In this document: positions 10,205-47,303 of the stretch, one piece after another
Layout: the number at the start of each line of letters is the position of its first letter
Numbering within the stretch: position 1 is the first letter of the stretch
NCBI GenBank assembly: GCA_944354535.1
Contig: CALVPY010000018.1
Coordinates: 1 to 47,303, forward strand
DNA length: 47,303 nucleotides
Source: an uncultured Clostridia bacterium
Lineage (GTDB): Bacteria; Bacillota; Clostridia; Christensenellales; Borkfalkiaceae
Direction: 5' to 3'
Position numbers and translations under genes: made by a program
The notes under the pieces: model-generated
The model's input: only the letters and a program-made list of their open reading frames with translations
Told to the model about the DNA's origin: nothing
Databases searched by the model: none

Positions 10205-10896
10205 TCGGATCCCTCCATTCGGTTGAGCCGGGCGACGAGACGGAAGATAGGCTTCCCCTGCCCGGCGAACTGACGCTCGTACTCGGTGACGATATTGTCC
10301 TTCGCGGCGTCGCTGTTATGAAGGTCGCGCGTGACCTCCTCCACCGCAAAGCCGTTCAACAGGAACTGCTCGATGGAATAGTCGAAAAAATCTTCGCTGT
10401 CCGTCTTCTGGACGATGGTGCCGCCCTCCTTCAGAAGTTCGCGGTAGATCACAAGGAAGCGGGGCGACGTGAGCCGCTGGCGGGCGTGCGTACTTCCGGG
10501 GAGCGGCGTCGAAAAGTTGAGATAGATGCGCTCGACGCTCTTTTCGGGAATAAAACAGGGGAGCACTTCCGCGGGGACGTTCAGAAAGCGCACGTTTTTG
10601 ACATCCTCCTTCTTGATGCGCTCCATCGCCGTGACGATGACGTTCGAGATGATCTCCACCGCAAGGAAGTTGATGTCGGGCTCGCGCCGAGCGGCCTCTA
10701 AAACAAAGCCGCCGTTGCCGCAGCCGATCTCGAGCCTGACAGCGTTCCCGTTGCCGAACAGTTCGCTGTAATCAAAGAGGGCGCGGTACTCTTCCGCCGC
10801 CTTTTTGAGATCCTTCATGGGGACGCCGCGCGCCGCCAAAATATCCGAGCAAGCCTCGAGCCTGGGCTCGAGGTTGCGTTTCCTGCGCATTCTCAT
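10201..10896 (-). CDS. trmB: tRNA (guanine46-N7) methyltransferase, variant
   Basis: The 231-residue product fits TrmB, which methylates N7 of G46 in tRNA with S-adenosylmethionine. The SAM site LEIGCGNGGFVLEAA (about 55-69) and the C-terminal TEYERQF motif are clear. The usual core motif with the sequence SDPWPKxRHxKRRL reads STPLPGSTHARQRL here (residues 129-142), so the Asp regarded as catalytic is Thr130 and the Trp is Leu. The enzyme may be a lineage variant or altered in activity. The start overlaps the dut stop by one base (TGATG). Confidence 0.88.
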   Translation of the reverse strand: MRMRRKRNLEPRLEACSDILAARGVPMKDLKKAAEEYRALFDYSELFGNGNAVRLEIGCGNGGFVLEAARREPDINFLAVEIISNVIVTAMERIKKEDVKNVRFLNVPAEVLPCFIPEKSVERIYLNFSTPLPGSTHARQRLTSPRFLVIYRELLKEGGTIVQKTDSEDFFDYSIEQFLLNGFAVEEVTRDLHNSDAAKDNIVTEYERQFAGQGKPIFRLVARLNRMEGSE

Positions 10897-37561: not shown

Positions 37562-38335
37562 GAAAGCGCTTCTATGATAGCCTCCCTCTTGAGGGAGGTG
37601 GCGGCGCATTCGCTGTAAGCGATGCGACGACGGAAGGAGTTTTCCCGGTTGGCTCGCCGCACTTCCGAACAACTCGGCGGCTGTGGTTCAAACCCTGTGC
37701 GCCTTTGGCGGCGCGCCCTCGTCGGAGCAAGACATCGATCTCAAGCCTCCCCTGTGCAAGGGGGTGAGCCGCGCATGATACGCATCGCCACGGTGTGGCG
37801 TGCGCGCGCGGCGAACTGAGGTTTTTGCCATTGTGGGCAAAAACCGCGACCGAGGCGGCGTTTCCCTTGCGCCGCCGAGACGGTGGCAGGCGAGGAACGA
37901 GCCTGACGGAGGGGTTGTTGAGTTCGCTTGACACCAGCCTTACAACCCTCCCGCCTCGCTTCGTTCGGAAACCTCTCTGCGTTCGGCACCCTCCCTTACA
38001 CAGGGAGGGCTAAAATTATGACAGCTCCCTCATTGAGGGAGCCGAGAAAGCGCTTCTATGATAGCCTCCCTCTTGAGGGAGGTGGCGGCGCATTCGCTGT
38101 AAGCGATGCGACGACGGAAGGAGTTTACCCGGTTGGATCGCCGCACTTCCGAGCAATTCGGCGGCTGTGGTTCAAAATCAGGCGCAGAGACAAGCGCAGA
38201 GACAGGGATTCAGCCGACACCCCGAAGGGGTCCCCTCGGCTGAGCGTCGTCGCTTCGCTCCTCGCGTGAACCGACAGCCGAGAAAGCCTCACTGCATCCT
38301 CAAACAATTCGGCGGCTGTGGTTCAAACCCTGTGC

Positions 38336-38377
38336 GCCAAAAAAAGACGAGGTGAAATCACCTCGTCTTTTTTTGGC
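38336..38377. terminator. perfect hairpin with A- and T-runs next to a tRNA 3' fragment
   Basis: Two 22-bp perfectly complementary arms centred on GACGAGGTGA/TCACCTCGTC, with seven A and seven T inside the arms, can terminate in either direction. On the minus strand it follows directly after the tRNA-Ser 3'-end copy at 38374-38394. Confidence 0.75.
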
Positions 38378-38394
38378 GCAGAGACAGGGATTTG
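38374..38394 (-). pseudogene. copy of the tRNA-Ser 3' end
   Basis: The 21 bases are identical to 38574-38594, the acceptor, T-arm and CCA end of tRNA-Ser, exactly 200 bases away and in the same orientation. The 5' part of a tRNA is missing. Shorter pieces of the same end lie at 38181-38192 and 38194-38210. Confidence 0.75.
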
Positions 38395-38536
38395 CGCCTT
38401 TGGCGGCGCGCCCCGGTGAACAGCCCACCGGGCTGTTCAGTTTGCGCCGAGCTGATTTGTCAACAGGCAATTCGCGCGCAAACCGTTTGCTCCCGCAAAC
38501 GCCTCCACCCTCAAATCCCTGTCATATTTGTGTAAC

Positions 38537-38573
38537 GGAAAACGGAGCCGACCAAAGTCGACTCCGTTTTCCG
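38537..38573 (-). terminator. terminator after tRNA-Ser
   Basis: On the minus strand GGAAAACGGAG pairs with CTCCGTTTTCC, with an additional GAC/GTC pairing around a CAAA loop, directly after the CCA end of the tRNA. Confidence 0.75.
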
Positions 38574-38811: not shown

Positions 38812-41800
38812 TCAAGCATCATATTCTATCAGAGATATAGCTGTCTTTAATACAATTTTTGTTAATCGGTTAAACGCTCTCTCATTAGACCCATTATAAT
38901 AAACATTTTCATTTAAGTCAGCATCATTATTGTCATTACTCGTTCGGCCGATCTGTGTGTAATGATAAGTGAATGTCCAATCATAATTATACTCTCTGCT
39001 ACAAATCGCATCACTCTGATTTGTAGTATCTTCTCGATAACAAACAGTATTAACTCCGAGTATTTTTCCTGTTGAAATACTCCCCGAGCTATTAGCATTT
39101 ATCGCGCCGTTAGAACCTTCATACGTCCCGCCGGAAAGTTGAACATTGCTCCCGGGATTAACCTCGAAGTACAACCCGGAAGTATTACTTCCCGTAAAGA
39201 TACCATTTTGAATAATCAGCTTATCTTGTGAGCAACCATACCAAACGCCAAAGCCGTTTGCTGTATAGGTGCCGCCGTTGATAGTCACATTAGAAGATCT
39301 GCCACCATCCTTAGAAAAAAGTAGATCATCCTGAAGCGCTACAGCCGCACGATCTATTTCTGAAGTTACAGATACGTTAATATTTTGATTATTAGTAGAA
39401 GTATCTTCAAATGTTATATCCGTATAACGGAAAGTTGCGACTGCGTCGGTGTTCTTGCTATAAAAATTACCCTTTTCAATTTTAATTTTCGATTCTTCAT
39501 CGGGTAACCCCATAAAGAATGCGCTGCCATTGGTACTAACAACTTCAGAACTTCCAAACGTTCCGCCGTTGACAAGAACATCTCCTCCGATTATCTTGAT
39601 CCCGTAAGATTGAGCAGGGCCTGTCAAATTAGCATTTTTGCCATACTGAACACTATTGTATCCGAGGAACGTACCTCCGCTGATTTCGACGGCGTAATCG
39701 TCCCCCTCCGCTGCCTGTGCGCCGCGCACGAATATGCCATTCCCGTGAGCCGTTTGATACTGACCCCCACGCACTTTTAATGTGCCGCCATCGATTTTAA
39801 CGGCGTCACCGCCCGTTGTCGTACAACGATAATTCCATGCTCCACCGTTTATAAGTTCGATGGTTGTAGTTTCCAAGCCATAACCGGTTGTTTCAATCGT
39901 TAACCCACTTGAATTTTTATTCGCATCGACCGTATAGGCGCCTTCCCCCTCTTTTCCCAGCGTCACCGTGCCGCCATTGACCAGCACGCCGCCGCCGACC
40001 GAGTTTGTGATCGACCCCGAAGCGATTTCGACGCTGGTACCCGTAGAGCCCTCCACGCGCACGGCATAACTCTTGGTCTTAAACATATAATATGCATTAT
40101 CTGGCTTTAAATTTTCATTATCACCGTTTCCAAACGCATCATTCACCACGCCCGTATGCTCGACGTAGAGCGTTCCCGTCGAGTTCAGCGACCCGCCGTT
40201 GACGAAAATCCCGTTGAAGCGGCTCGTCTTGAACGAAGCATTTTCAAAGTCTGCGCCCTCGTTTTCCCAAGAGGAGCTGATCGTACTCGTCACGTCGAGC
40301 TCGCCGCTGTTCGTCACGGTGCCGCCCTGCACATACACGCCCGTCGCGCGGGAGGCGTTCACCCTAACGGCTGCGCCCTGTGCGATCGAGACGGTATCTC
40401 CCTCGCCTCCGCTGCCGACGGCGACAATGCCGAGCGCCGCACAATCTACATTGACCGTGCCATACAGCACCGCCTTACCGTTATCGGCAAAGACGCCTGC
40501 GCCATAGGTGCCGGCTGATGTATCGATCGCATTGCCGTTCAGGCTGCCCGTTTTGATCGCAACCGTTCCATTCCCGACGACGTTGTCGTTTTCATCGTAC
40601 TGAGCGCCCAGCACGACATCGCCGCCATGTACATATACGCCGCCCGCCTGCGCCGCATTGAGCGCGCCTTGACGGATGCTTGCATAGGTGTTCGTCGTCT
40701 CCGTTGCGCCGTCATCCGACGAATTGGTGACATAGACGGCATAGCTCTTGGTGGCACTACTCACGGAAGAAGGTGTATCCCCTGCAGCCCCCTTGAAGGT
40801 GACGTTGAGGATGCTGGATACCCCTTCCGACACGAGCGAACCGCCGTTGACGAAAATCCCGTTATAAATATTGCCGCCTGCCGTGCTCGAGCCGCCGAAG
40901 TCTGCCCCGGCGCTCGTGTAGAGGGCGTCGCTATCATCGAAGAGGTCGCTCGTCACTTCGAGCTCGCCGCTGTTCGTCACGGTGCCGCCCTGCACATAGA
41001 TGCCCGTGGCGCGCGTCGCCGTGACGGAAGATGTGCCTTCCGTCGTGAAATTGCCGCCCAGCACCGCCACCCCGAGCGCCGTCGAATAAATTTTCGCGCC
41101 GCTCAATCTGACCGTGCCTTTCTTCACCAAAACGCCCGCCGCATAAGTCGGATCATTTGCGGTAAAAGTATCATCCGAGACCGTGCCGCCCGCGCTGACC
41201 GTAACGGCGCCCGCCGTGAGCTCGCCGCCCGAGACGTAGATGCCGCCCGCGCTGTTCCCCGCGATCGCACCGCTTCCGAGCGTAACGTCTCCGCTTTCCA
41301 CGGACACGGCATAGCTCGAATAGTGGTTTGCTGCATTCGTATCCGACGCCTCGCCCGTATGCTCGACGTTGAGCGTGCCTTCGGACGTGATCGAGCCGCC
41401 CTGCACATACACGCCGTTGTAGATATTGGGCGCATTGACCTCGCTTGACTCCGGAGGGGTCGCCCAGGAAAAGCCCGACTTCACCGTGCTCTCCACGCTG
41501 ATGGTCGCGTCTTTTTTGACATTGAACTGACCGTTGTTCACATAAATGCCCGTGCCGCGCGTCGTTTTCACGATCGACTTTCCGCCCGTCACGTTCACCA
41601 CGCCGCGCGCCGTGATGCCGAGCCCGTTGGAATCGATCGTCACGTTCCCCGAAATGTTCACGGGATTCTCCTCATTCCCGGAAGCCTGCTCCGAACTCAC
41701 CCCCGCAGAAGTGAGCAGAATATTATGATTTGCATCCTTTTCATCGCTCTGCTGCACGTTGATGACGGTATCATTGCCGAGATCGATCGTGCCGTCGTAG

Positions 41801-43380
41801 GAGAGCACGCCCGCCGAATAATCGCCGTAAATATGGAAGCTGACGCCCTTCGTCGTGACCGTGCCGCCGCCGTCGGCGCGGATGCCGAACACGTTTTCAA
41901 GCGTGCTGTTTTCCGCTCCCGCCGTCATCGTCACGTCGCCCGTTTTCGCGCCGCTGACATTCAGCGTACCGCCCAGGAGGGAAATGATGGCGGTCTGATT
42001 CTCAAGCTGCTTATCTCCCGTGCCTTGCTTGCAGCCCGTCTTGATGAATGAGCCCTTCGTGACGGTCATATTGCCGTCCAGCATCTCGATCGTGTTGCCG
42101 ACCTCGGATGAAAAGTCGCCGCCGGAGATCGTGAGCTCTGCGCTCTCCCCGCTGCTTCGGATGCAGACGCCCTCTCCGCCCGAGGAGAAGGTCGTCTCGA
42201 ACGTGGTATTGCGGGAGACGGAGAGCCTGCCGCCCTCCGCATAGATGCCGTAGGTATTGGCTACGTCGAAATGGTTATAGAAAGTGCCGCCGCGCACGAT
42301 GCCTTCGCCCTCCACCATGCGCACCGCGCCGTAGGGGTAAACGAGGCCTTTTTCCCGAAGGTTTTCCGCCGTGCTGCCGTCATTGCTCGCCAGCTTCATG
42401 ACATCCCAATAGCCGTAGATGACAGCGTAATCTTCATAACCGTCATTATCATCATCCCCGATGGGATAGTAGTAATAAAAATCGCAGGAGGCGACGTCGC
42501 AGAGCGGCGTCGTAAATTCCGAGGCCGTGATGATAGTATCATTGCCGACCGTTTCCTTTTCGGCATCGACATAGAGCTTGCCCTCCTCGAATGTGACGCC
42601 CCCCGAAGACGTGCCGTCGCCGATAAAGCAGTTTTGCGCCTCCGTGTAGACGAGGAAGGTATCGGCGGGAACGAAATCATAGCCGGAGCCTGCCGTCTCC
42701 TGATAGTATCTGCCCGTCGTTTTAGGAACGAGACCCGAGGAAGCTTCGATCTCTTGATAAAAAAGCTGGTTGGCCCGATCGACTTTATCAGGAGACGTAA
42801 TGCCGCCCCTTGTGAAAATGGCGACATCGGAAGGCTGTGAAGTCAGCTCGCCCGCAGCCGTTCCGTTTTCATACTCCTCCGCGCGCGGGCCGCTCTCGTA
42901 GCCGCCCGAGCCGACCGTCAGAGAGCCGCCGCTCGCCATCAGGGAGCTGCCGACGGGGTTGTAGAATGCGCCCGTATTTTTAGAATCGTACACGAGCACG
43001 ACGGAGACGTTGGTCTGCACGTCGAGCATGGGGTTGCGGCTGTTCCGCACGACCACATTGCCGTTGAGGTTGAGCACGAGGTTTGCCTCGACATCCGTGA
43101 CGCCCTCCGTGATGACGAAAGGCTGCTCGGCGTCTTCTGAGATGACGATGTTGGAGTAGCCGTCCTCAATGGCCTGGATGAGCTCTTCGGGCGAACGCAC
43201 CGTATATTCGCGCGCGCCGACAAATTCGATGAGGTCGTCGTACGGGCTGTTCTCGGAATCGAACTTGCCGCCCGTATAGAGCCCGTAAGTGAAAGTATAG
43301 GTAAGCGACGCCGCCATCAGACAGATGATGAGCGCCGCCATGACAATCATGATGAGAGTTTTGCGCATCTTATGCGTCAT
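38812..43380 (-). CDS. giant exported beta-helix surface protein
   Basis: The 1522-residue product has one N-terminal membrane helix or signal anchor (about 7-28) and then a very long right-handed parallel beta-helix. The repeated units read like GIYVQGGTVTNSGELEVTS and GIFVNGGSLNSTGTLYV. At least three near-copies of a larger module are visible; for example, DNA at about 40292-40353 and 40951-41012 is nearly identical. No sortase motif or C-terminal anchor is seen. AAAAGGAGG precedes the ATG at 43380, 22 bases after the upstream gene. The last 850 or so bases (38812-39700) are clearly AT-richer than the rest. An adhesin or matrix role is inference. Confidence 0.85.
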   Translation of the reverse strand: MTHKMRKTLIMIVMAALIICLMAASLTYTFTYGLYTGGKFDSENSPYDDLIEFVGAREYTVRSPEELIQAIEDGYSNIVISEDAEQPFVITEGVTDVEANLVLNLNGNVVVRNSRNPMLDVQTNVSVVLVYDSKNTGAFYNPVGSSLMASGGSLTVGSGGYESGPRAEEYENGTAAGELTSQPSDVAIFTRGGITSPDKVDRANQLFYQEIEASSGLVPKTTGRYYQETAGSGYDFVPADTFLVYTEAQNCFIGDGTSSGGVTFEEGKLYVDAEKETVGNDTIITASEFTTPLCDVASCDFYYYYPIGDDDNDGYEDYAVIYGYWDVMKLASNDGSTAENLREKGLVYPYGAVRMVEGEGIVRGGTFYNHFDVANTYGIYAEGGRLSVSRNTTFETTFSSGGEGVCIRSSGESAELTISGGDFSSEVGNTIEMLDGNMTVTKGSFIKTGCKQGTGDKQLENQTAIISLLGGTLNVSGAKTGDVTMTAGAENSTLENVFGIRADGGGTVTTKGVSFHIYGDYSAGVLSYDGTIDLGNDTVINVQQSDEKDANHNILLTSAGVSSEQASGNEENPVNISGNVTIDSNGLGITARGVVNVTGGKSIVKTTRGTGIYVNNGQFNVKKDATISVESTVKSGFSWATPPESSEVNAPNIYNGVYVQGGSITSEGTLNVEHTGEASDTNAANHYSSYAVSVESGDVTLGSGAIAGNSAGGIYVSGGELTAGAVTVSAGGTVSDDTFTANDPTYAAGVLVKKGTVRLSGAKIYSTALGVAVLGGNFTTEGTSSVTATRATGIYVQGGTVTNSGELEVTSDLFDDSDALYTSAGADFGGSSTAGGNIYNGIFVNGGSLVSEGVSSILNVTFKGAAGDTPSSVSSATKSYAVYVTNSSDDGATETTNTYASIRQGALNAAQAGGVYVHGGDVVLGAQYDENDNVVGNGTVAIKTGSLNGNAIDTSAGTYGAGVFADNGKAVLYGTVNVDCAALGIVAVGSGGEGDTVSIAQGAAVRVNASRATGVYVQGGTVTNSGELDVTSTISSSWENEGADFENASFKTSRFNGIFVNGGSLNSTGTLYVEHTGVVNDAFGNGDNENLKPDNAYYMFKTKSYAVRVEGSTGTSVEIASGSITNSVGGGVLVNGGTVTLGKEGEGAYTVDANKNSSGLTIETTGYGLETTTIELINGGAWNYRCTTTGGDAVKIDGGTLKVRGGQYQTAHGNGIFVRGAQAAEGDDYAVEISGGTFLGYNSVQYGKNANLTGPAQSYGIKIIGGDVLVNGGTFGSSEVVSTNGSAFFMGLPDEESKIKIEKGNFYSKNTDAVATFRYTDITFEDTSTNNQNINVSVTSEIDRAAVALQDDLLFSKDGGRSSNVTINGGTYTANGFGVWYGCSQDKLIIQNGIFTGSNTSGLYFEVNPGSNVQLSGGTYEGSNGAINANSSGSISTGKILGVNTVCYREDTTNQSDAICSREYNYDWTFTYHYTQIGRTSNDNNDADLNENVYYNGSNERAFNRLTKIVLKTAISLIEYDA

Positions 43381-43402
43381 TCCCGTCCTCCTTTTACGAG
43401 GG

Positions 43403-45028
43403 TCAAGCGCCCGCCTGTACGGGCAGTTCGCTGTGCTGCTCGAAATAGACGGCGAACCGGACGGCATACCCCTTTTCGGCGGCAACGCAATATTCGGTTT
43501 CATCTATTTTAGTCGTCTCAAATTCCGAAGAGGAGAACGAGCCGTCGTATTTACTGCTTCCCAAAACGCCGTCAGCGATCGTTACGGAAGGATCGCCATC
43601 GCAATCGTAAGAGCCATCCGTCTGCGCTATAAGCGGGTGCGGATAGGCGCCTTCGCCCGAATTGATCGAAGCGATGTGCTCCCATGCGATCGTAGGAGTT
43701 TTAAGTTTATTCCATGTGCCGCTCTCATTCCGTTCCTTGACCGTCTTATTCATGCGCACGGTGGTGAGAATGTCCTGCACGTTCCCCGCTTCATCCTTCT
43801 GCTTGGCAGGCACGTCGTTGTAGTTGAAGTGATAACCGATGACCTGAGCGCCGTTGAATGTGTCGTTGAATGTGTCGTTGAATGTGTCGCCGGCCGTCGC
43901 AATCGTCACCAAATCCTCAGGCGTCCGCGCGACGTCCGTTTTCAGATCGGACGAAGGCAGGGAATTCGTCCATGTGAGGAAGAGAAGCAGGGAATCTTCT
44001 TCCCCTTTCTCTCCTTGCGCAGTCTTGGCGCCCAGAACGAAGTACGGGTCGCTCTCATCCGATACGGTGTAATTATCGGGCAGGGTGATCTCGATCGTAT
44101 AATAGGGGACCTGCTTGACGCAATCGAGGTAGAATGCGGGCATCGAATGGGTACCCTCCCGACGGACAAAACCCACCGAGTACTGCACTTCCTGCATGCT
44201 CGCCGTAATGGTGATGGTGAGGTCTTGAAAGTCATCCGTTCCGCTGCCAAAGAAGGGAGTGCCCGGGGAGTCTTCTGTTTTTGTTGCGGTATCCGTTGCC
44301 GATGTGCGCACGGCGGTCACGCTGCCGCTGAACGTTTCATTTCCGCTTTCATCTTTGGTCTTAATGCCGCCCGACATCAGGAAGGTCTCTTCGATGCTGC
44401 CGCGCTGGCCGAACTCATCGGAGAACTTGGTATCGAAGAAGACGGTATCGAACTCGCCGACGCTTGCGCCAATTACCGGCGCATTCGTGTTATCCCAATC
44501 AATATAATCACCATACTTATAGTTGTGCCTTTCGTCGCTTGTCGAGCCATCGGCCGTATCGCCGCCATATCTTACCCGCAGAAAATCGGCGAGGACGTAC
44601 TGCGTCGTCACGACTTCGCCCGCCGCATAGCCCGTTTCGGATTCGCTCTCCTCCTTTACGGTCGTGAGCTGCAGGGCGATGTTCTCCCAAAACTCGGCAG
44701 GGCCTTCCATCGTGAGGGTATGCGCGTGCGCGTCGATATCGCTGTTGTTGTACATCCCGACGCGAACGGTACGCGAACCGCCCTGTGCATACCAGCCGCC
44801 CGCCAGCTGCTGCCAGTAGCTCTGATTGCCGAAGGTGAGCGAGTTGACGCCGTCGATGGTATAGGAGACGTCGAACTTGGCGATGCCGGCGCCCATGCCC
44901 GTATCGCGGTAGAGCGCAAAGCGTGCAAAAGTGACGCCCGTAAACAACAGCGTCACCGCGAGGAGCAAACTCAGATACCGCATCAGCGGATAGTTCCATT
45001 TAGTTGTTCTCGCCTGCTTCTTGCTCAT
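43403..45028 (-). CDS. TasA/camelysin-like SipW-type exported protein (tentative)
   Basis: The 541-residue product has a hydrophobic N-terminal segment LSLLLAVTLLFTGVTFARF (about 19-37), with an Ala-Arg-Phe junction like the cleavage region of SipW substrates, then a large beta-rich domain starting IAKFDVSYTIDG. It lies directly after the SipW-type peptidase gene and overlaps it by 29 bases, which supports it as the peptidase's substrate. AAGGAT lies five bases before the ATG at 45028. A 12-bp tandem repeat (43853-43888) encodes three copies of DTFN. No known family was recognised with certainty. Confidence 0.75.
   Translation of the reverse strand: MSKKQARTTKWNYPLMRYLSLLLAVTLLFTGVTFARFALYRDTGMGAGIAKFDVSYTIDGVNSLTFGNQSYWQQLAGGWYAQGGSRTVRVGMYNNSDIDAHAHTLTMEGPAEFWENIALQLTTVKEESESETGYAAGEVVTTQYVLADFLRVRYGGDTADGSTSDERHNYKYGDYIDWDNTNAPVIGASVGEFDTVFFDTKFSDEFGQRGSIEETFLMSGGIKTKDESGNETFSGSVTAVRTSATDTATKTEDSPGTPFFGSGTDDFQDLTITITASMQEVQYSVGFVRREGTHSMPAFYLDCVKQVPYYTIEITLPDNYTVSDESDPYFVLGAKTAQGEKGEEDSLLLFLTWTNSLPSSDLKTDVARTPEDLVTIATAGDTFNDTFNDTFNGAQVIGYHFNYNDVPAKQKDEAGNVQDILTTVRMNKTVKERNESGTWNKLKTPTIAWEHIASINSGEGAYPHPLIAQTDGSYDCDGDPSVTIADGVLGSSKYDGSFSSSEFETTKIDETEYCVAAEKGYAVRFAVYFEQHSELPVQAGA
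43853..43888. repeat. 12-bp tandem repeat, three copies
   Basis: GTTGAATGTGTC occurs three times without mismatch inside the coding sequence and encodes DTFN units. The unit is a multiple of three, so copy-number slippage would keep the frame. Confidence 0.9.
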
Positions 45029-45560
45029 CAATATCCTTCTTTTTGCCTCCCGGGATGAGGTCGATCAGGAGCCACACGCCGACGGCCGCAATGAGCAGCA
45101 CGCAGATGCCCGCAGGGGAGCGGAAAAATGCGGCGACCTTCCCGAAGCCGTGCCATACGGCAAAGACCTTCCCCACCACCTGTTCGGGAGAGACGGGGTC
45201 GATGTCGGCATCCTGATTGTTGACGCCTTTTGTAATATAATTTCCGTTTTCGTCGATTTCTATGATCTGATGCGTAACGGCGATCGTCTCGCCGTACGAG
45301 CCCGTCGTCTGATACATGACGATATCGCCCACGGCGTAGCTGTCCTGCGCACGGGTAAAGACGAAGTCATCCTCGTTGATGAGCGGCTGCATACTGCCCG
45401 TTTCCACATTTGCCGAGGCAAGCCCGAACACGGTGGGCGTCGGGTCATGGAACGCATAGCGCCGGATGAGCAGATAGACGTTGACGACGACGAGGATGCC
45501 CACGAGCACCATGATCGCGATGCGCAGCACCTTCGCCGCAATGTACAGAGTTTTCTTCAT
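45000..45560 (-). CDS. sipW: SipW-type signal peptidase I
   Basis: This 186-residue membrane protease has a helix at about 10-32, the catalytic Ser56 in ETGSMQP, and His97 (THQII) and Asp117 or Asp119 in place of the Ser-Lys dyad, as in the ER-type SipW branch. It ends with another helix (about 153-170) and a charged tail. SipW enzymes process TasA-like proteins that form extracellular fibres. It lies between two candidate substrate genes. The upstream ribosome site is weak (GGATC), and 320 bases of repeats separate it from the gene before it. Confidence 0.9.
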   Translation of the reverse strand: MKKTLYIAAKVLRIAIMVLVGILVVVNVYLLIRRYAFHDPTPTVFGLASANVETGSMQPLINEDDFVFTRAQDSYAVGDIVMYQTTGSYGETIAVTHQIIEIDENGNYITKGVNNQDADIDPVSPEQVVGKVFAVWHGFGKVAAFFRSPAGICVLLIAAVGVWLLIDLIPGGKKKDIDEQEAGENN

Positions 45561-45594
45561 ATTGGATCCATTTTGTTGAGAATGCCCGCAAACT

Positions 45595-45850
45595 GCCGAA
45601 CCCTTCCCATTTCAGGCGCCCTCAGGAGGGAGGCTATCCTCATTTTCGGCTCCTCCTCGGGGGAGCTGGCAAGGCATTCGGCGTTTTGCCGATGCCTTGA
45701 CTGAGGGAGTTGCTTCTCTACTCCTTCCGTCGCGGCATCGCCTGCGGCGAATACCGCGCCACCTCCCTCAAGAGGGAGGCTATCCTCACTTTTGGCGCCC
45801 TCACCGAGGGAGCTGTCACCGAAGGTGACTGAGGGAGTTACCTCATTTCA
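45595..45850. repeat. palindromic repeats between sipW and the upstream gene
   Basis: This gap holds a GAGGGAG...CTGAGGGAG repeat with a GGCATTCGGC/GCCGATGCC hairpin (about 45662-45719), the core also found in the 37.6-kb island (45720-45780), and a GAGGGAGCTGTCACCGAAGG repeat (45806-45839). The same units are found in frame inside the coding sequence at 46860-47303. No promoter is obvious. Confidence 0.8.
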
Positions 45851-45880
45851 GGCGCGTGCCGGAAGCTTACGGATGTCCTT

Positions 45881-47303
45881 TCAGGAGGCGGAAGCAGCGA
45901 CTTCACCGATGAGCTCGATATTCATCTGATACTCGCCGCCCTGTTGGGTGAAATTGGTATCCTTCTCATCGTCGTCCACCCACTTCCAATAGAGGGTGAA
46001 TTCCGCCGTCTTGCCGGGCTTCAGCGAGATACTGCCGAGCTCAAAGTCTTCGTGATCGGTATATTCTTCGGGGGTGAGGTATTCGCCGTCCATCGTCAGC
46101 ATATAGCGCATCTCGATGTCCGCATCGTTGTCCTCGAGAAAGGCAAAAGAACAGACGACGGGCATTTCGACAAAGTTGCTGGCGGTGAAGGTAAAGACCC
46201 CCATATCGCCGGGATAGACGTAATCCAACGCCTCGCCGTCACCGTCCACGAAGTGTACGGGATTTTCGATGATAAAACTCCATTTGCCGTTTTCGGCGCT
46301 GTCCTCGACAAAGGAATAGTTATCGGGAAGGTCCAGCCCGACCCGCTCCGCAAAGGGAGAGAAGCGCAGGGTAAGACCCGCCGAAAGCAGCCAGAGGAAG
46401 ATGAAGGCAAAGAGAAAGAAGAAGATCGGCAGCCGCGCGAAGAAGGGGCGCAGGCTCGCGATATATTCGGAAGAGAGCGTCCGGACATTGCGGTGTTTGT
46501 CGAGATACCCCACGCGCTCGCCGCCGAGTTCCAGAAAGACGCCGTCCTTTTCCCGAACGAACGTACCGCGGAGATTGCCGTCGCGGTCGAACCACGCATG
46601 GCGGCGCACGCTGCCCGCATGGTTGCCGTAGCGATCGACGGCATCGGTGCGCTTAGGAGCCCTGCCCATGTGGGGCGGATCCGCTCTCCGCCGCCGCTCG
46701 CAGGCAAGACGCCGCTTTTCACGGCGCTTTTCGAGGCGCGCCGCCTCCTTTTCCGTTCGCCTCCGACGCTTCGCCTCTGCTTTGGCGATGCGCCTTTGAC
46801 GCCTTGCATCCCGCCGCGCCCTGCGGTTTTTGGGCGCCTTGCTCGGAGGAGTTTCCTCATTTGAGGCGCCCTCGGGAGGGAGGCTGTTTGGGGATTCCTC
46901 ATTTGAGGCGCCCTCACCGAGGGAGCTGTCACCGAAGGTGACTGAGGGAGTTTCCTTATTTTTAGGCTCCTCCTCGGGAGGAAGGCTATCCTCATTTTTG
47001 GCGCCCTCACCGAGGGAGCTGGCAAGGCATTCGGCGTTTTGCCGATGCCTTGACTGAGGGAGTTGCTTCTCTACTCCTTCCGTCGCGGCATCGCCTGCGG
47101 CGAATCCCGCGCCACCTCCCTCAAGAGGGAGGCTGTTTGGGAGTTCCTCACTTGAGGCGCCCTCGGGAGGGAGGCTATCCTCACTTTTGGCGCCCTCACC
47201 GAGGGAGCTGTCAAGGCATTCGGTGCTTTGCCGATGCCTTGACTGAGGGAGTTGCTTCTCTACTCCTTCCGTCGCGGCATCGCCTGCGGCGAATCCCGCG
47301 CCA
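45881..47303 (-). CDS. TasA-like membrane-anchored protein with repeat-derived N-terminus (5' end outside the window)
   Basis: The frame is open from the window edge to the stop at 45881, giving 473 visible residues. Residues 1-152 are encoded by the palindromic repeats, with units such as LPQSRHRQNAECL and SSLGEGAKNEDSLPPE. About 153-207 is an Arg/Lys/Glu-rich likely coil (KNRRARRDARRQRR). A membrane helix is at about 285-308 (PIFFFLFAFIFLWLLSAGL) and a C-terminal beta domain ends with LKPGKTAEFTLYWKWVDDDE, like camelysin/TasA relatives. No ATG, GTG or TTG occurs in frame before 46669; starting at that ATG leaves only a weak, distant ribosome site. It precedes sipW and is a likely partner or substrate. 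Confidence 0.65.
   Translation of the reverse strand, partial: GAGFAAGDAATEGVEKQLPQSRHRQSTECLDSSLGEGAKSEDSLPPEGASSEELPNSLPLEGGGAGFAAGDAATEGVEKQLPQSRHRQNAECLASSLGEGAKNEDSLPPEEEPKNKETPSVTFGDSSLGEGASNEESPNSLPPEGASNEETPPSKAPKNRRARRDARRQRRIAKAEAKRRRRTEKEAARLEKRREKRRLACERRRRADPPHMGRAPKRTDAVDRYGNHAGSVRRHAWFDRDGNLRGTFVREKDGVFLELGGERVGYLDKHRNVRTLSSEYIASLRPFFARLPIFFFLFAFIFLWLLSAGLTLRFSPFAERVGLDLPDNYSFVEDSAENGKWSFIIENPVHFVDGDGEALDYVYPGDMGVFTFTASNFVEMPVVCSFAFLEDNDADIEMRYMLTMDGEYLTPEEYTDHEDFELGSISLKPGKTAEFTLYWKWVDDDEKDTNFTQQGGEYQMNIELIGEVAASAS
46860..47303. repeat. repeat block inside the coding sequence
   Basis: Two copies of a larger unit lie 189 bases apart (cores 47073-47133 and 47262-47303, the second cut by the window edge), so the step is 63 codons and keeps frame. 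A GAGGGAGCTGTCACCGAAGG unit lies at 46919-46952. All are also found as non-coding DNA at 45595-45850. Confidence 0.85.

What the first reader, a model, noticed from the sequence alone, without database searches (positions are those of the whole stretch)
46650..47303. Palindromic intergenic repeats apparently recruited as protein-coding sequence
The repeats that are non-coding at 37562-38573 and 45595-45850 also lie upstream of the TasA-like gene, where they read through in its frame with no stop for about 150 codons to the window edge. The larger unit steps by 189 bases, exactly 63 codons, and differences between copies are mostly amino-acid changes such as N/S and A/D without stops. They then lead into an Arg/Lys-rich segment that looks like real protein. 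This suggests that a mobile-type repeat has extended a surface protein. Caution: in GC-rich DNA other frames are also open here, and the ribosome start is not visible.
Basis: partly seen in the sequence, partly recalled or inferred. Interest (0 to 1): 0.7.

Follow-up and report, generated by a model that had tools for sequence, protein, structure and literature searches.

The report
Palindromic repeats translated inside a protein
In an uncultured clostridial bacterium, short dispersed palindromic DNA repeats that mostly sit between genes have very probably become part of a membrane protein's reading frame, lengthening its floppy inner end; similar in-frame insertions are known from Rickettsia and some other bacteria.

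Summary
The minus-strand frame 45881-47302 stays open through the repeats to the window edge. The window's right end equals, over 43 bases, the start of another contig of the genome (C36). There the frame continues to an ATG with a good ribosome site and an in-frame TAA 18 nt upstream: 555 codons. A second species (G055, public contig CALVTT010000035.1) has the gene on one unbroken contig, with the same start, leader, Arg/Lys segment and a 99% identical core, but a 44-residue repeat block instead of 190. Coding copies keep the frame: TGA stands at the linker site in 0 of 10 coding and 7 of 12 non-coding copies; both coding units are 147 nt to the next palindrome, and the five comparable non-coding units are one base shorter. 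The same palindrome, in the same frame, sits in a linker of an XRE-type regulator. A distant orthologue (G090, 29% identity) carries two other dispersed palindromes in frame. Corrections: the repeat part is probably cytoplasmic and disordered, and 'TasA-like' is unproven. Translation was not measured. Closest precedent: Rickettsia palindromic elements. Side finding: DUF559 endonuclease genes in this genus are often flanked by shared repeats.

The parts
45881..47302 (-). Part of the gene inside the window (codons 82-555 of the joined gene; the first 81 codons and part of codon 82 lie on contig C36, ATG at C36:288 minus)
   Evidence: Open frame; continuation, start and ribosome site on C36
46838..47303 (-). 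Palindromic repeat block read as protein, window part (190 residues in all in the joined gene)
   Evidence: Repeat families; block limits; hairpins with z below -2.9 in 3 of 4 stretches folded here
46972..47114 (-). Long unit, second in reading order
   Evidence: 97% identical to 47161-47303
47161..47303 (-). Long unit, first in reading order, cut by the window edge
   Evidence: last 43 nt shared with the start of C36
46670..46837 (-). Arg/Lys-rich segment, 56 codons, predicted long helix
   Evidence: 4 silent and 1 amino-acid change against G055
45881..46669 (-). Core: short beta-rich domain, membrane helix (about 46361-46471), beta-rich outer domain
   Evidence: Model; 13 orthologues over most of the length in 103 genomes of the genus; weak Bflower_2 match in 4 of 12 aligned members
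45595..45850 (.). Non-coding array of the same palindromes between this gene and the signal peptidase gene
37562..38573 (.). Related palindromes in the other orientation, non-coding
45000..45560 (-). SipW/archaeal-type signal peptidase I next to the gene
   Evidence: TIGR02228, 79 bits against cut-off 52

Best explanation
The block is translated. It is the N-terminal, cytoplasmic, disordered part of a membrane-anchored protein encoded beside a SipW-type signal peptidase. Dispersed palindromic repeats, mostly intergenic, entered the frame at a place that tolerates changes of length, just upstream of an Arg/Lys-rich helix. Once a unit sat there in frame, further units were added at existing palindromes, and only additions that keep the frame survived. 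The amino-acid sequence seems little constrained, so the block works as a spacer of variable length. Shown from sequence: open frame, start site, a relative with fewer repeats, stop and frame differences between coding and non-coding copies, a second host protein. Inferred: translation, topology, spacer role, mode of growth.
For: Start with AGAAGGAG and in-frame TAA 18 nt upstream. The contig join rests on a 43-nt exact overlap and on G055:C35, one contig collinear with both. G055: same start, leader, Arg/Lys segment and core, repeat block 44 instead of 190 residues. Coding frame is the only one of six without stops in 568 nt; every same-sense frame (12 of 12) of four non-coding arrays has a stop. 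Linker TGA 0 of 10 coding, 7 of 12 non-coding, Fisher p 0.005. Both coding units read GAGGGCGCC where five of five comparable non-coding units are one base shorter. Same palindrome in the same frame in an XRE-type regulator's linker, in 4 of 7 orthologues read. G090's orthologue carries two other dispersed palindromes in frame, two copies each. Repeat part modelled as coil with pLDDT about 30-45, Arg/Lys segment as helix near 90.
Against: Leader, repeat and Arg/Lys parts score below zero on codon usage in the coding frame (-0.23, -0.07, -0.29 per codon; core +0.29), and in the repeat part one reverse frame scores slightly higher (0.018). The leader's 2 differences from G055 both change the amino acid. 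Repeat copies are not independent, so p 0.005 is only a guide. The linker count goes by motif, not by each array's own frame. The coding units carry a different palindrome variant at the one-base site, and that variant also occurs in the intergenic array (45796), so it need not have arisen under selection. The join runs through a repeat, so copy number is uncertain and more units may be missing. The opposite strand of non-coding arrays is open in 2 of 12 frames. No peptide data.
Confidence: 0.8

Rival explanations
1. The protein starts at ATG 46669 or close to it. The upstream block is an ordinary non-coding repeat array that happens to be open because the palindromes themselves have an open frame.
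For: Non-coding single units are open over 44-46 codons in the same frame; codon usage of leader, repeats and Arg/Lys part is not coding-like; ATG 46669 exists.
Against: A start with ribosome site and a 47-codon leader in frame in two species; no spaced ribosome site at 46669; coding copies lack the stops and the one-base shortening of non-coding ones; 4 of 5 differences in the Arg/Lys segment are silent; 12 orthologues other than the window gene have open frame upstream of the core.
Confidence: 0.13
2. The long version is an assembly artefact: contigs of this draft genome were wrongly extended through repeats, and the real gene has a short block as in G055, or is broken.
For: Both contigs end inside the repeat; draft genome of 53 contigs.
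Against: The window alone carries more than one long unit in frame and its own distinct sequence differences. G055, a separate assembly, confirms everything outside the long units.
Confidence: 0.05
3. The repeat began as an ordinary coding tandem repeat of this protein, and the intergenic copies are spilled from it.
For: Some orthologues carry low-complexity or tandem repeats at the same place (G048, G039).
Against: Related copies lie on many contigs, 25 of 27 checked between called genes; G090 holds different palindromes; the XRE gene has the element without the rest of this protein.
Confidence: 0.02

Closest known systems
Rickettsia palindromic elements (RPE) in protein-coding genes (Ogata 2000 and 2002, not read; passages seen in PMC2229807, PMC10969869, PMC3767692)
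   Same: Short palindromic repeats, intergenic and also in frame inside protein genes, without breaking the frame
   Different: Here an uncultured clostridial genus; modular arrays that grow by whole units (42 and 189 nt) inside one gene; different palindromes in the same protein of different species. No sequence comparison with RPE was made
Bacterial MITEs with open frames fused to genes: ERIC/RU-1, RU-2, RU-3, 107-bp Correia (passages of PMC2229807)
   Same: Small non-autonomous repeats with an open frame, fused in frame to other frames
   Different: No terminal inverted repeats or target-site duplications were shown here; units are chains of short hairpins
REP/BIME arrays with RAYT transposases (recalled)
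   Same: Short hairpins in modular intergenic arrays
   Different: No Y1 transposase found in this genome; DUF559 genes are associated instead

Membership tests
RPE-like in-frame palindromic insertion (as a kind, not as the RPE sequence family) | Element dispersed, with copies outside genes | tested here: met
   44 matches in the genome, window copies included; 25 of 27 checked copies on other contigs lie between called genes
RPE-like in-frame palindromic insertion (as a kind, not as the RPE sequence family) | Palindromic, hairpin-forming | tested here: met
   5 of 8 stretches folded with z below -2.9; 3 did not (42-nt unit 0.33, first G090 palindrome -0.59, XRE copy -1.74)
RPE-like in-frame palindromic insertion (as a kind, not as the RPE sequence family) | In frame in more than one unrelated protein, absent from some orthologues | tested here: met
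   This gene and an XRE-type regulator; XRE element in 4 of 7 orthologues read, absent in 3
RPE-like in-frame palindromic insertion (as a kind, not as the RPE sequence family) | Translated product shown | not testable with these tools
   No peptide data
RPE sequence families of Rickettsia | Sequence similarity to RPE | not tested
   No RPE sequence was fetched
REP/RAYT system | Y1 transposase (PF01797) in the genome | tested here: not met
   0 matches in G000, a draft 92.8% complete; control rings in 5 of 14 genomes
TasA/CalY family | Match to a family model or solved structure | tested here: not met
   No TasA-type match in Pfam, NCBIfam, PDB sequences or Foldseek; the model is poor in the outer domain

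The most novel reading that the evidence does not exclude
In this clostridial genus a system of dispersed palindromes, spread together with DUF559 endonucleases, is a standing source of new in-frame disordered protein segments. Different species feed different palindromes into the same linker of the same protein, and units already in frame are landing sites for more, so that the protein grows in steps.
Probability: 0.3. Interest if true: 0.75.

Novelty: new variant of a known kind. Interest (0 to 1): 0.6.

Why it matters
It extends in-frame recruitment of palindromic repeats beyond the groups named in the passages that I read (Rickettsia, Wolbachia, enterobacteria, Neisseria and a few others). 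It offers a before-and-after pair of the same gene (44 against 190 residues), so that the cost or use of such segments can be tested. The DUF559 link gives a testable candidate for how palindromic repeats spread where no RAYT-type transposase is found.

Tried and rejected
Rfam scan of the window: a T-box and a tRNA, nothing on the repeats. RAYT/Y1 transposase as mobiliser: not found. Foldseek on the single-sequence model: matches to many beta-sandwich folds at low TM-score, not used. Tandem Repeats Finder on 45500-47303 reported two 12-nt repeats in the Arg/Lys segment and not the array. Codon usage did not help the coding claim.

Further host proteins: the genus-wide peptide search matched in 23 of 103 genomes. 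Of 15 places that I checked (in 14 loci), 8 lay between called genes and 7 overlapped a called ORF. I judged 6 of the 7 to be chance matches inside ordinary proteins (five of them look, from recall, like RecJ twice, UvrA, RecO and DAHP synthase) and 1 a spurious N-terminal extension. No new host protein was accepted. In this genome 2 of 27 checked copies overlapped a called ORF (27 of the 30 matches on contigs other than C18 and C36); one is the XRE regulator, the other a spurious N-terminal extension.

Mistakes mended: one search read the loci whose match is on the minus strand on the wrong strand; seven were redone, the weak partial matches L031-L033 were not. In one search the G090 copies were taken at the centre of each locus, wrong for loci cut by contig ends; five were redone (4 between genes, 1 touching the start of a called ORF). 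The first G055 linker search used wrong coordinates (2 matches) and was redone (44 matches). A first DUF559 test by hairpins alone was weak (both flanks 11 of 24 against 3 of 17 controls, p 0.10; any flank 18 of 24 against 11 of 17, p 0.51); the shared-sequence test was made after it.

Full report
What was checked. The window is a whole contig, C18 of a 1.93-Mb draft genome in 53 contigs. On the minus strand a frame runs from 47302 to its stop at 45881 without interruption (473 codons). Its upstream part is made of repeats that also lie between genes at 45595-45850 and, in the other orientation, around 37562-38573. The two long copies in the frame are 189 nt apart, and 143 nt of each align at 97%.

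The missing start. The last 43 bases of the window equal the first 43 bases of contig C36. Into C36 the frame continues to an ATG preceded by AGAAGGAG, with an in-frame TAA 18 nt upstream. The joined gene has 555 codons: leader 47, repeat block 190, Arg/Lys segment 56, core 262. The join is supported by G055, another genome of the genus: its contig C35 (public record CALVTT010000035.1, 'uncultured Clostridia bacterium isolate BRZ_KS__bin81') is collinear with both contigs. There the same start, leader, Arg/Lys segment and core stand on one contig with a repeat block of 44 residues. ATG 46669 has no well-spaced ribosome site.

Is the frame kept? In the 568-nt coding block of the joined gene the coding frame has 0 stops in 189 codons; the other five have 18, 2, 8, 2 and 2. 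In four non-coding arrays (one in the window, two on C36, one in G055) 12 of 12 same-sense frames have a stop; of 12 opposite frames 2 are open. At the linker between palindromes (GCC-xxx-A) TGA stands in 0 of 10 coding and 7 of 12 non-coding copies (p 0.005). Two more non-coding TGA copies (window 45853, G055 14032) were left out by the context rule of that count. The copies are related to each other, and the count goes by motif, not by each array's frame. In an alignment of two coding and six non-coding units, both coding units read GAGGGCGCC where the five non-coding units that cover the place are one base shorter, which would break the frame. The coding units have another palindrome variant there, also present in the intergenic array (45796). 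The Arg/Lys segment differs from G055 by 4 silent changes and 1 amino-acid change, the leader by 2 amino-acid changes. The first 54 codons of the two long units differ by 4 amino-acid changes and 1 silent one. So the frame looks kept, the amino-acid sequence less so. Codon usage gives no support: leader, repeats and Arg/Lys part score -0.23, -0.07 and -0.29 per codon, the core +0.29.

Relatives. Of 103 genomes searched in the genus 15 matched the core, 13 of them over most of its length. I read the N-terminal parts of these 13. They differ in length and content; several hold low-complexity or tandem repeats. Three (G000, G055, G090) hold palindromes that I could tie to dispersed copies; the other ten were not tested for this. 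G090, 29% identical in the core, has two other palindromes in frame, each twice; in its genome they have 19 and 31 matches, these included. Of 22 such G090 loci, 4 are in this gene, 17 lie between called genes and 1 touches the start of a called ORF. So the orthologues share a tolerant place rather than one element.

A second host gene. Of 30 matches on contigs other than C18 and C36 I checked 27; 25 lie between called genes. One of the other two is a real in-gene case: an XRE-type regulator (HTH_3) with TPSVACGDSSLQEGA in its linker, the frame of TPSVTFGDSSLGEGA in the window gene. Of seven orthologues read, four have element-derived sequence there (G000, G084, G154 with a partial second copy, G055 with a longer and different block) and three do not (G034, G058, G017). 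The G055 linker matches 44 places in its genome, itself included.

How it most likely works. A model from the single 473-residue sequence (mean pLDDT 55) leaves the repeats as coil at about 30-45, makes the Arg/Lys segment a helix near 90, and shows a membrane helix followed by a poorly modelled beta-rich domain. With so many positive charges before the membrane helix the N-terminus should be inside (positive-inside rule, recalled). The block is thus best seen as a cytoplasmic spacer of variable length. Growth seems to start from palindromes already present: between two genes on C36 about 1.15 kb of array is missing from G055, which has a single palindrome at that place. In the coding gene the extra 49-codon pieces of G000 also stand between short palindromic units.

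What is known. Passages of PMC2229807, PMC10969869 and PMC3767692 (no paper read whole) describe Rickettsia palindromic elements in frame in many genes, and open frames in ERIC and one Correia type that fuse with genes. This case works like those. I compared no sequence with them and do not call it a member. Eight library searches listed, by title and start of abstract, no report of such insertions in Clostridia; that is no proof of absence.

A side finding. The array on C36 encloses a 122-residue DUF559 protein (PF04480, E 1e-27). DUF559 occurs in 57 of 103 genomes of the genus at E 1e-8 and in 1 of 14 control genomes. I gave 29 of 31 loci (30 fetched, one per genome, best scores first, plus C36) to a flank test; 25 had enough flank. 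In 15 of 25 the left and right 300-nt flanks share an exact stretch of 18 nt or more, against 1 of 18 usable XRE control loci of 23 (p 0.0003). In a second test, 26 loci given and 22 usable, it was 14 of 22 against 0 of 45 shifted positions in the same loci. DUF559 flanks were counted from the domain match and XRE flanks from the whole open frame, a small asymmetry; the shared stretches were not each shown to be palindromes; and a first test by hairpins alone was not significant. DUF559 genes may travel with such repeats or help to spread them; which is open.

Noticed in passing
L001 (contig C36) 2743-3111 minus; loci L132-L161: A DUF559 endonuclease-like gene sits inside the palindromic array. 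In the genus, DUF559 flanks share exact stretches of 18 nt or more in 15 of 25 loci against 1 of 18 controls, and 14 of 22 against 0 of 45 shifted positions.
   Followed up: partly
L001 (contig C36) about 2740-2765 minus: The DUF559 reading frame ends inside a palindrome (KDSLSHLR-stop): the repeat supplies the last codons and the TGA, in another frame than in the window gene.
   Followed up: no
L001 (contig C36) 2216-3364 against L034 about 10553-10562: About 1.15 kb of array with the DUF559 gene is missing from G055, which has one short palindrome at that place.
   Followed up: partly
window 45884-46669 against L020: The core is 99% identical between the two species although window 41546-46929 as a whole is 87% identical to G055: local exchange or strong constraint.
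   Followed up: no
L005 5127-6398 minus; L077-L083: XRE-type regulator with repeated LAPFLS segments and the palindromic element in its linker; in G055 the linker holds a longer, different block of dispersed repeat.
   Followed up: partly
window 38812-45560 and L001 560-5637: Cluster with a SipW-type signal peptidase, large unnamed proteins and a second possible signal-peptidase-like protein on C36 that matched no family model.
   Followed up: no
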